Source: Okeania sp. SIO2C9 (GTDB lineage Bacteria; Cyanobacteriota; Cyanobacteriia; Cyanobacteriales; Microcoleaceae). Taken from it: a stretch of 64,000 bases of DNA. Position numbers and translations under genes: made by a program. The stretch is taken from positions 62,001 to 126,000 of the forward strand of contig NZ_JAAHGO010000015.1 in NCBI RefSeq assembly GCF_010672455.1. Direction: 5' to 3'. This document shows, piece by piece, positions 40,964 through 43,827 of the stretch (the stretch's first letter is position 1; every line of letters starts with the position of its first letter). The notes beneath the pieces are model-generated. The model did no database searches. It saw only the letters and a list, made by a program, of their open reading frames with translations, and had not been told where the DNA came from.

Positions 40964-41260
40964 AATTTTTTCTTCTAGATTTTTATGTACTGATATCAAA
41001 TATCAAATAAAGTTTTGATTCTGGTGGAGCTGGAAATTTGGCTCAATCCATTTTTGGTCATCCAGATAATTTTGAATGACTAAAATGGACGTTAGTTTAT
41101 AGTTATTTCAGATTAGCTATATAAGCATTAGTAATACTTTATATCTTGCTAATTCCAGTAATCTTCACTTTTTTAGCCTTCATTTCCATCAAGTAAACAA
41201 TTCGGGATGCTTGGAATCCCTGTCGCTTGAGCGCAGCGACTCGTGCGACTTTAGCCACCG

Positions 41261-42435
41261 TTACGCTACACATAGCTTGTTCGACCTCCCAATGAGCCGC
41301 ACCTTACTCGGTGCGTATTGCCCTAACCGTTTCCAGTTGTGGTCATACACACTGATATTTTTGGACTTGGCTGTCTGGGTATAACCACCTACCCAGCCCA
41401 TCAAAGTTTCACCAGACTTGGTAGCCATGACTCGATCGCCACAGCGCACATCAAATGGGGTAATGGTTCCACCCTTGCGCTTGCGCTTTCCTCCCTTGTC
41501 AGCCTTGTCAAAGTGCAATGCTCTACGAAAGTATTCAGGTCTGGTGATTGTCCTGAATGGTGCAGAGGTAATGGTGACAGACCCAATCCATGTATGCAAG
41601 TCGTAGCCAATCTTGGGTACCAGTCCAAACCTAATGAACTCTGTAGCAGCTAAGGCCATGCCATCTACTGGATGAGACTCTGGTGTTTGAGCCTTCTTGT
41701 CCTTGATTTTTGTTAGTCCCAAATGCTTGCGGATTTGACTGGTACCATTGCCATTTTTCTGCCAACCTAAGACGGTCTTGACTGGTGCAATAGACAGCAA
41801 TTGCTTCATCGCCCAGAAATGGGCGACCATCACAGGAGAAAACCCTTTGCCAGAACGCGCCCCCCTCCTACCACTAGTTAAATCCACATCGGCTTTGATG
41901 ACCTCATAAACCATGCTGGATATTGGATAGATTTTGGATAGCTCAGTCACTATTCTGAACTCCATCTCCCTAGCAGCTCGAATTGATGGAGCTATCTTGC
42001 CATCACGCCTACGGTTGTCAAACCGCTTCTGGCGGTGGGCACGTTGCTCGAAAAGGATTTTCCGATTAATCCGCTGGCCACGCCTCACTCGACGATGAAG
42101 GGCACGACCAGGAGCATTTTTGATAACTTTGCCGTTCTTGATCGTGGCTGCACCTATGCGCTCTTTTACCCGCTGAAACGGCAGAACCAGATGAGCTAGA
42201 TAGAGGGTGGCTTTGGCCGACTGTATAGCAACCCCTGTGTAGGACTTGCCTGGGTCTACCCCTACTGCTACCTTTTGAACGTTGCGACCTGATGGCTCAA
42301 CGACTAAGCAGACCTAGTAAATGCCAGCATCATTCCAGTGCCCTGTTATTTCGCTCTTACCCAACGACGTGCCCGTGATGCTTTGGTGGGCATCGCTGGC
42401 GTACCGTCTGGGTTTTGTACCGGAACTCTAGTCAT
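41261..42435 (-). pseudogene. isrB: IsrB-type (HNH-less IscB) RNA-guided nickase gene, inactivated
   Basis: Reads from ATG 42435 as MTRVPVQNPDGTPAMPTKAS, a PLMP-like N-terminus, then loses frame by a one-base deletion and meets a TAG about 14 codons later. The rest is open to 41261. RuvC-I aspartate is in VAVGVDPGKSYTGVAIQS. The arginine-rich bridge helix (HRRVRRGQRINRKILFEQRA, QKRFDNRRR) follows, then RuvC-II VYEVIKADVDL and RuvC-III HPVDGMALAATEF. No HNH domain lies between II and III, the feature separating IsrB from IscB. The C-terminus has GGKRKRKGGTITPFDVR and SVYDHNWKRLGQYAPSK. 1175 nt, one short of 392 codons. GC is above its surroundings, suggesting transfer. Confidence 0.85.
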
Positions 42436-42655
42436 TTTGGAGATAATCCTAAATTAGTTGTATGTCCCTATGACCCCCTAATACGTTGTGTCTCACAGTT
42501 ACGCGATGCTTCTACCAAAAGAAGCCCACAGGTAATCCAGACTAGGGAAATATCTGGAGGTGTGCGTATTAGGCTTAGTCTAATCACCTTTTAGTTGGGT
42601 ATTGGGCTACCCAAGCTCCGTCGCGAAGAGCGCGGAGAAGGTGACCTTCTTGTCT
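42436..42655 (-). ncRNA. Probable omega RNA of the IsrB element
   Basis: IsrB and IscB genes are preceded by a structured guide RNA whose 5' part is the guide. Here about 220 bp directly upstream of the isrB start are non-coding, GC-rich and stem-forming (for example AAGGTCACCTTCTCCGCGCT with CTCTTCGCGACGGAG, and GGGCTTCTTTTGGTAGAAGC on the minus strand). The 5' end lies at the stop codon of the next gene, so the guide would come from that gene's 3' end. Inferred from position and structure, not from a covariance match. Confidence 0.6.
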
Positions 42656-43827
42656 TATGATGATGGCCTGATCAAAACTACTGGGGTTTGTTCATCTGCA
42701 TTTCCTGCGGGATTACTTCTTAAAGCTTCCTCTAGTAAAGAGGTAGATACATTAGAGGTTGCTGCTAATATTTTAACTGCTTTCAAATCGTTAACATCTA
42801 CGATCGCTGCACCCAGACCAGTTGCTTTTTGGATTTGTTCTACTAATTTTTGAGGATTTTCTGGGCCTAAAACTATAAATTGGTCATAAGGAGGTAAAGT
42901 TCCGGTAACATCATCTATTAGTCTGGCTTGTTCTCCTGCAAATTGATAGAACATACCGGGCTTTCCTAATAATTTGGCTATGGCACCTCCCAAAAAGGCC
43001 ATCAATACTTTGGCTGGTCCAACAATATCTACAAGAGTTTGCATCCCACAAGCTGTTGCTAGACTAGAAGTGGGCAGAAAGAAGTAACATATACGTTTGG
43101 CTACCCATCCAGGTTTAACGTCAGTGGGGTGACGAAAACGACCTTGTATTAGGGCTAGGGGTGTTTCACCGATGGTCACTATGTCCCCTGGTTGAGCATG
43201 GGGAACGACGTAACGTTTGACAATTTCTATCGGATCGTCTAACTCTGTTAATAAATGAGTGCGAATGGGAAATACTGCTGCATTTTGTGCTTCTCGCTGA
43301 TTTGGAATAGCTTTAGGATCGGGAAATTTGAGAGGCACTACAATATGGCGAGTTTTGGGAATGCGACCTTGAGGCCCATAGGTAATATAATTAACTTTAA
43401 TCCAAGCTGACTTTAGTTGGTCTAAATTTTCCCCATGAATATCAATTGATATCTTCAGTTTTGTCTTTTTTCCTACTTTAACAATATAAGCAAACCAATA
43501 GTTATCGGGTCTAGCAGGGGCGTCTTCATGGAAAGGAATAATTTGAGTTTGATAATTTACTTTTTCTAAACTTGCACCAGACAGTAGTTTTACTTCTGCT
43601 TGTATTTCTGGCACCATAATTTCTAAGCTTTTGGTACGGTTGCATAATTCCATTTCACCCACTAATAAGTAATTTTCTGGTTCTGCAACTGCTAAATGCC
43701 ATTCTCCAGAGGTTAGTTCTAAAGCATTTCCTGGACGACTACGATATTGTAATTCTAGTGCTAAATAGCCTAAACCTAGAAGTACAGTTAAGACGATAAT
43801 TCCTGTTGTGAAAATTTCTATAATCAC
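42655..43827 (-). CDS. F420-0:gamma-glutamyl ligase-like (CofE-like) protein
   Basis: 390 residues. N-terminal membrane helix (IFTTGIIVLTVLLGLGYLAL) followed by a cyanobacteria-type extension, then the CofE-like core with RTHLLTELDDPIEIVKRYVV, GDIVTIGETPLALIQGR and VIVDVNDL-like GAAIVDVNDLKAVKILAAT. Cyanobacteria of this kind are not known for F420 use in this context, so the true substrate may differ. Start GTG 43827, with GGAG eight bases upstream. The IsrB element is inserted just after its stop codon. Confidence 0.82.
   Translation of the reverse strand: MIIEIFTTGIIVLTVLLGLGYLALELQYRSRPGNALELTSGEWHLAVAEPENYLLVGEMELCNRTKSLEIMVPEIQAEVKLLSGASLEKVNYQTQIIPFHEDAPARPDNYWFAYIVKVGKKTKLKISIDIHGENLDQLKSAWIKVNYITYGPQGRIPKTRHIVVPLKFPDPKAIPNQREAQNAAVFPIRTHLLTELDDPIEIVKRYVVPHAQPGDIVTIGETPLALIQGRFRHPTDVKPGWVAKRICYFFLPTSSLATACGMQTLVDIVGPAKVLMAFLGGAIAKLLGKPGMFYQFAGEQARLIDDVTGTLPPYDQFIVLGPENPQKLVEQIQKATGLGAAIVDVNDLKAVKILAATSNVSTSLLEEALRSNPAGNADEQTPVVLIRPSS

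What the first reader, a model, noticed from the sequence alone, without database searches (positions are those of the whole stretch)
41261..42655. IsrB-type RNA-guided nickase relic with its upstream omega RNA
The RuvC-I, bridge helix, RuvC-II and RuvC-III motifs are all present, but no HNH domain separates RuvC-II from RuvC-III, the hallmark of IsrB. A PLMP-like N-terminus and a 220-bp structured, non-coding stretch upstream complete the picture. Only one base deletion and one TAG separate it from a functional gene, so inactivation looks recent or could be a sequencing artefact. The probable guide would be copied from the 3' end of the CofE-like gene into which the element sits. No tnpA is nearby.
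Basis: partly seen in the sequence, partly recalled or inferred. Interest (0 to 1): 0.75.

Follow-up and report, generated by a model that had tools for sequence, protein, structure and literature searches.

The report
Broken RNA-guided nickase transposon, precisely bounded
This is a dead copy of a small mobile element that once made an RNA-guided DNA-nicking protein in a cyanobacterium; its relatives repeatedly sit exactly in front of the start codon of ordinary host genes, which is the more interesting result.

Summary
On the minus strand, 42435-41261 is a broken isrB gene (solved IsrB 8dmb E 4e-26; RuvC I/II/III residues kept; no HNH; one frameshift, one in-frame TAG). 42645-42436 is its omega RNA: it spans the Rfam HEARO model but scores 27 bits against a cut-off of 83; 21 of 67 pairs covary in 7 sequences. 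A congener has the exact empty site: the element is 42645-41193 (1453 bp), inserted without target duplication between the presumed guide site and TTGA, the published IsrB target-adjacent motif. No intact copy was seen in this genome (two of five copies run off contigs). It is a new, dead member of a known kind.

Relatives gave an unexpected result. Of 169 cyanobacterial copies, 132 right ends could be placed; 120 are followed by ATGA. In 73 of these 120 that ATG opens an ORF of at least 100 codons. In the replicate set 39 of 66 look like gene starts, against 43 of 389 intergenic ATGA control sites. Exact empty sites confirm it for dapB and gshB. The window copy belongs to a TTGA lineage that does not do this (1 of 10). 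What the start-codon placement is for is inferred, not shown.

The parts
41193..42645 (-). whole IsrB element, 1453 bp, left end at 42645, right end at 41193
   Evidence: exact empty site in congener G003 (L042); independent alignment of the G002 copy over the same span
41261..42435 (-). isrB pseudogene (one frameshift in the N-terminal part, one in-frame TAG at 42314-42316)
42436..42645 (-). omega RNA (HEARO-type) scaffold; RNA 5' end side at 42645
   Evidence: Rfam HEARO 42645-42457, model 1-211, 27 bits, E 0.005; 21 of 67 pairs with compensatory changes
42646..42665 (-). presumed 20-nt guide source, left flank (11 bases of the CofE-like gene's end plus 9 intergenic bases)
   Evidence: position directly 5' of the scaffold; 20-nt guide length taken from PMC9581776; sequence; inference
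41189..41192 (-). TTGA directly after the right end = target-adjacent motif; belongs to the target, present in the empty site
   Evidence: TAM from PMC9581776
41222..41240 (-). right-end hairpin 1 (GTCGCT / AGCGAC arms), by eye
   Evidence: sequence
41204..41220 (-). right-end hairpin 2 (GGGAT / ATCCC arms), by eye
   Evidence: sequence
42254..42256 (-). RuvC-I aspartate codon (GVDPG)
   Evidence: alignment with 8dmb and G002
41903..41905 (-). RuvC-II glutamate codon (VYEV)
41663..41665 (-). RuvC-III aspartate codon (HPVDG)
42655..43827 (-). neighbouring CofE-like gene (F420_ligase, 23.8 bits against a cut-off of 25), intact, not part of the element

Best explanation
A decayed non-autonomous IsrB element of the IS200/IS605 kind. 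It inserted, without target duplication, directly 5' of a TTGA; its omega RNA would have carried the left flanking DNA as guide and led the IsrB nickase to unoccupied copies of the same site; movement would have needed a Y1 transposase supplied in trans. This copy can no longer make full-length IsrB. Shown here: the boundaries, the empty site, the missing duplication, the TTGA, the covarying RNA, the lesions. Inferred: guide use, nicking, the helper transposase, and that the lesions are real decay.
For: Solved IsrB 8dmb is the only PDB match at E 0.001 (4e-26); Pfam RRXRR 1.5e-28; catalytic D, E and D kept and no HNH. Exact empty site in G003 and identical ends of the G002 copy, which lies at a different locus. 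All 10 other related right ends shown are followed by TTGA. The omega RNA structure has 97.8% of cells paired against 34.5-44.2% when slid. An intact 392-codon copy exists in G002, 92% identical. In this genome five copies were found and none seen intact. The guide plus NTGA has no other site in the genome at up to 3 mismatches.
Against: Rfam HEARO score is 27 bits against a cut-off of 83 (the intact G002 and G020 copies also miss it: 31.3 and 45; three other loci gave no hit at E 0.1). The 92%-identical G002 copy does not show TTGA exactly at the aligned right end (GTTGAC then AAG). dN/dS against G002 is 0.26, close to other pairs (0.31, 0.39), so relaxed selection is not visible. Of the measures one, further pair types, does not exceed its shuffles (41 against 41.3). 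The C83 copy is cut by its contig end and has no stop in the part seen, so an intact copy in this genome is not excluded.
Confidence: 0.93

Rival explanations
1. The gene is intact in the organism and the frameshift and TAG are sequencing or assembly errors.
For: Only two lesions; dN/dS 0.26 still looks like constraint; G002 has an intact close homologue.
Against: Two independent lesions in one gene; C135 carries 2 TAA, C39 a TGA, C285 is a fragment; the G004 copy lacks residues 1-196. Family-wide decay in the genus makes a real pseudogene more likely.
Confidence: 0.1
2. The copy is not functionless: its omega RNA is still made and works in trans with an IsrB from another copy.
For: The window omega RNA keeps the pairing and aligns full length to HEARO.
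Against: No intact isrB was seen in this assembly, with the C83 caveat; the guide has no other NTGA-flanked site in the genome at up to 3 mismatches.
Confidence: 0.12
3. It is an IscB that lost its HNH domain rather than an IsrB.
For: NCBIfam IscB matches the RuvC I-II part (E 4.4e-13).
Against: 49 bits against a cut-off of 175; 8dmb IsrB is the only PDB hit at E 0.001; the intact relatives in cyanobacteria also lack room for an HNH.
Confidence: 0.03

Closest known systems
IsrB with omega RNA (DtIsrB, CwIsrB, DsIsrB; PMC9581776, passages seen)
   Same: RuvC I-III with bridge helix, no HNH, PLMP-type N-terminus, C-terminal KRxGQ motif in the part that reads the TAM, upstream omega RNA, TTGA/NTG TAM; two of the published orthologues (Crocosphaera, Dolichospermum) are cyanobacterial
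   Different: the window copy is broken; PLMP reads PAMP; the omega RNA scaffold is about 210 nt instead of about 260
Rfam HEARO RNA (RF02033)
   Same: aligns over model positions 1-211, left end of the element equals model position 1
   Different: 27 bits, cut-off 83
IS200/IS605 elements
   Same: no target duplication, subterminal hairpins, fixed short target motif
   Different: no Y1 transposase in the element; the conserved motif lies on the side after isrB
Microcystis ORF2067 insertion in cyanophage Mic1 (PMC11237433, passages seen)
   Same: cyanobacterial IsrB element inserted at an NTGA motif (ATGA there)
   Different: that insertion disrupts a phage gene; the one here is intergenic and dead
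IscB
   Same: RuvC and bridge-helix family, upstream omega RNA
   Different: IscB carries an HNH domain

Membership tests
IsrB | split RuvC (I, II, III) with bridge helix | tested here: met
IsrB | no HNH between RuvC-II and RuvC-III | tested here: met
   about 80 residues between the RuvC-II Glu and the RuvC-III Asp; Pfam and NCBIfam report no HNH
IsrB | PLMP N-terminal domain | tested here: inconclusive
   PAMP in place of PLMP; Pfam RRXRR positions 1-24, E 0.0052, below cut-off; frameshifted from the rest
IsrB | TAM-reading Arg and Gln of DtIsrB (R323, Q326) | tested here: met
   KRIGQ of 8dmb aligns with KRLGQ; the numbering of the chain is my inference; roles from PMC9581776
IsrB | upstream structured omega RNA | tested here: met
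IsrB | NTGA/NTG motif 3' of the target site | tested here: met
   TTGA in the empty site
IsrB | RNA-guided nicking of the non-target strand | not testable with these tools
   needs biochemistry; this copy is broken
Rfam HEARO | gathering score | tested here: not met
   27 bits against 83; no HEARO among gathering hits in 9 related loci
IS200/IS605 | insertion without target duplication | tested here: met
IS200/IS605 | Y1 transposase | tested here: not met
   none of 20 Y1 hits on contig C57; tblastn with four ORFs (three Y1-like, one TnpB-like) found none in 169 IsrB loci at 1e-5; non-autonomous
IscB | HNH domain and NCBIfam IscB cut-off | tested here: not met

The most novel reading that the evidence does not exclude
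The ATGA-type cyanobacterial IsrB elements are start-codon hitchhikers. Their target-adjacent motif contains ATG, so they come to lie exactly between the 5' leader and the start codon of host genes, including housekeeping genes (dapB, gshB, leuD, secF, metH, argG). isrB and the host gene then stand in tandem, in 14 of 120 copies with the isrB stop overlapping the ATG. The omega RNA guide is the host gene's own leader, so the nickase would patrol alleles without the element, and loss of the element by anything but precise excision would threaten a needed gene. The positional bias is strongly supported here; the hostage or operon function is not tested. The window's own TTGA lineage lacks the bias.
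Probability: 0.4. Interest if true: 0.75.

Novelty: new member of a known kind. Interest (0 to 1): 0.5.

Why it matters
For the window alone: a well-bounded dead IsrB element with an exact empty site, which shows in nature that the insertion site and the published IsrB target-adjacent motif are the same TTGA. For the family: IsrB has mostly been studied as a tool, and where it sits in genomes was left open in the passages that I saw (PMC8400943 asks for an analysis of the precise location of HEARO RNAs). Exact insertion at start codons of housekeeping genes would give a testable reason why an element without its own transposase keeps a guide RNA and a nickase.

Tried and rejected
Shine-Dalgarno supply: many right ends finish with GGAGG- or AAGGAG-like letters a few bases before the ATG, which suggested that the element brings a ribosome-binding site. 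Over all ATGA copies the motif occurs in 44 of 120, and gene starts are not more frequent with it (22 of 44) than without it (51 of 76), so I do not claim it. Orphan omega RNAs in this genome: three matches of the RNA to isrB copies (the window itself, C135, C83) plus four short matches of 21-28 bases at E 0.09-0.16, which I treat as chance. A second target of the window guide: none. A tnpA partner beside relatives: none found with the queries used. Relaxed selection by dN/dS: not visible. Weinberg 2009, the HEARO paper, is not held; I recall that it reports HEARO elements directly before ATGA or GTGA, so the ATGA adjacency itself is probably not new. My paper searches for a start-codon link showed none in listings or passages; these searches cover open-licence papers only.

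Limits of the start-codon count. The right-end rule demands TGA within 9 bases of the aligned end, so the TGA is not a free result; only the first base and the ORF are. 37 of 169 copies were dropped before counting (22 without a usable pair, 15 without TGA). The searches kept few candidates per genome and long listings were cut. Copies share ancestry, although 116 of 120 downstream sequences are distinct. In 4 copies the ATG lies in a frame that is open far upstream (U of 59 to 407) and may be internal. Counts are from open reading frames, not from annotation; only 10 of the 73 downstream ORFs, picked because I recognised them, were checked against NCBIfam.

Full report
What is there. The window lies on contig C57 of a 10.88-Mb genome. 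On the minus strand a 350-codon open frame runs from 42313 to 41264; a further 27 codons of the same protein lie upstream in another frame from the ATG at 42435. The 350-aa piece hits Pfam RRXRR (E 1.5e-28) and, in the PDB, only IsrB 8dmb at E 0.001 or better (4e-26). NCBIfam IscB hits weakly (49 bits, cut-off 175). The RuvC-I Asp, RuvC-II Glu and RuvC-III Asp are present and no HNH lies between RuvC-II and III. The KRIGQ motif of 8dmb, which I take to hold the TAM-reading R323 and Q326 of DtIsrB, is KRLGQ here.

How it is broken. Against the intact 392-codon G002 copy the gene has one frameshift in the N-terminal part and one in-frame TAG. Four further copies were found in the genome: C135 with 2 TAA, C39 with a TGA and cut by a contig end, C83 cut by a contig end with no stop in the part seen, and C285 a fragment. 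A sixth hit on C50 is weak (E 9.4e-4) and I do not count it. So none is seen intact, but C83 cannot be judged. dN/dS against G002 is 0.26, so decay, if real, is recent.

The RNA. Rfam HEARO matches 42645-42457 over model positions 1-211, but with 27 bits against a cut-off of 83 (E 0.005). Of five related loci searched in the same way two hit, G002 with 31.3 and G020 with 45 bits, also below the cut-off; three did not hit at E 0.1. In an alignment of 7 related RNAs (one lacks the first 9 bases, one carries 3 extra), RNAalifold predicts 67 pairs, 21 with compensatory changes. Counting the same structure gives 97.8% paired cells, against 34.5-44.2% for slid versions; the covariation score exceeds all 500 shuffles, while the number of further pair types does not. 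The structure comes from these same sequences, so it has an advantage over the slid versions.

Boundaries. Four congeners lack the element at this site. In G003 the two flanks join exactly: window bases 42646 and 41192 are neighbours there. The other three carry about 165 bp of other sequence between the end of the CofE-like gene and the site, then the same ACAAGAAG|TTGATGG junction. The element is therefore 42645-41193, its left end is HEARO model position 1, there is no target duplication, and the TTGA after the right end is part of the target. The G002 copy aligns over exactly the same span but lies at another locus, at the end of another gene, so the lineage has moved. In one search the right ends of 10 other copies were printed and all 10 are followed by TTGA; the G002 copy is the exception.

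Relation to published work. Passages of PMC9581776 give IsrB as an HNH-less nickase of about 350 aa with a 20-nt guide, an NTGA TAM (TTGA preferred by DtIsrB at 60 degrees) and an NTG TAM for four orthologues including CwIsrB and DsIsrB, which come from cyanobacteria. The natural TTGA here fits that. Passages of PMC11237433 describe a cyanobacterial IsrB element inserted at ATGA in a phage gene.

The relatives. Set 1 holds 70 copies, set 2 a replicate of 99 new copies (one search gave none that I added to set 2). Right ends were placed by pairwise local alignment with votes. Of 169 copies, 22 had no usable pair and 15 no TGA near the aligned end; 132 were placed: 120 ATGA, 10 TTGA, 1 CTGA, 1 GTGA. 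In 73 of 120 ATGA copies the ATG opens an ORF of at least 100 codons on the strand of isrB. Joining the flanks to test whether the frame is also open upstream, gene-start-like sites (100 or more codons downstream, at most 40 upstream) number 20 of 36 in set 1 and 39 of 66 in set 2 after removal of near-duplicates and short contigs. Controls: 43 of 1024 ATGA sites in the flanks of set 1 (Fisher 4.7e-17); for set 2, 69 of 1359 ATGA sites in the flanks and 43 of 389 of those that lie outside or at the edge of ORFs (Fisher 8e-30 and 1e-16). Of the 10 TTGA copies 1 has such an ORF. The window copy opens 17 codons only.

The genes are real. Ten downstream ORFs that I picked as recognisable all match NCBIfam families from residue 1 to 13 onward: dapB, leuD, gshB, secF, rimK and a HAD-IB phosphatase pass a curated cut-off; metH, argG and cphA are cut by the end of the locus and stay below, and trxA stays just below. 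For dapB of G020, 3 of 9 congeners have the exact empty site, 5' leader|ATGACTAATTC, and 6 have another leader. For gshB of G030, 9 of 9 congeners read AATAAAG|ATG, where G030 has a 1374-bp element in between; in 6 of these 9 only the last stretch of the leader is alignable.

Reading. Insertion at ATGA that is merely purged from genes would give about 11% gene starts; about 59% was seen. Either insertion prefers start codons or copies there are kept. The isrB stop lies -8 to 102 bases from the ATG, and in 14 of 120 copies it overlaps it, 5 of these at gene starts, which would suit co-transcription. A built-in ribosome-binding site was considered and is not supported as the general reason. None of this applies to the window copy, which is a dead member of the TTGA lineage in an intergenic site.

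Verdict. The finding is correct and, for this copy, ordinary: a new, broken member of a known kind. The overall score of 0.5 rests mainly on the start-codon pattern of its relatives, whose adjacency to ATGA is, from memory, partly known for HEARO, while the coincidence with start codons was not seen in the papers that I could search.

Noticed in passing
L022, L021, L027, L150, L024, L182 and others (right end of the element): IsrB elements of the ATGA type sit exactly before host start codons; 73 of 120 placed ATGA copies open an ORF of at least 100 codons; exact empty sites for dapB and gshB.
   Followed up: yes
L089:984-1060 and 2371-2449; L138:2693-2789; L156:1415-1492; L157:1415-1492: Group II introns inside or directly before isrB: Rfam Intron_gpII above cut-off in all four loci; in L156 and L157 (two places of one genome) the intron ends just before the isrB start codon, in L138 it interrupts the omega RNA. 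An intron between guide RNA and nickase gene would have to splice.
   Followed up: partly
L043, L044, L045 after the CofE-like gene: Three other congeners carry about 165 bp between the CofE-like gene and the insertion site, starting with short AGAAGGC-type repeats, which G003 and the window lack.
   Followed up: no
L118, L142, L186, L194, L210: The same start codons appear to be hit in different genomes (cyanophycin synthetase in G315 and G589; another gene in G592 and G606); inheritance and repeated insertion were not told apart.
   Followed up: no
L237, right end: One TTGA copy sits at TTGATGG with the ATG starting a CpcT-like protein (recognised by eye); the window copy also sits at TTGATGG but with 17 codons only.
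   Followed up: no
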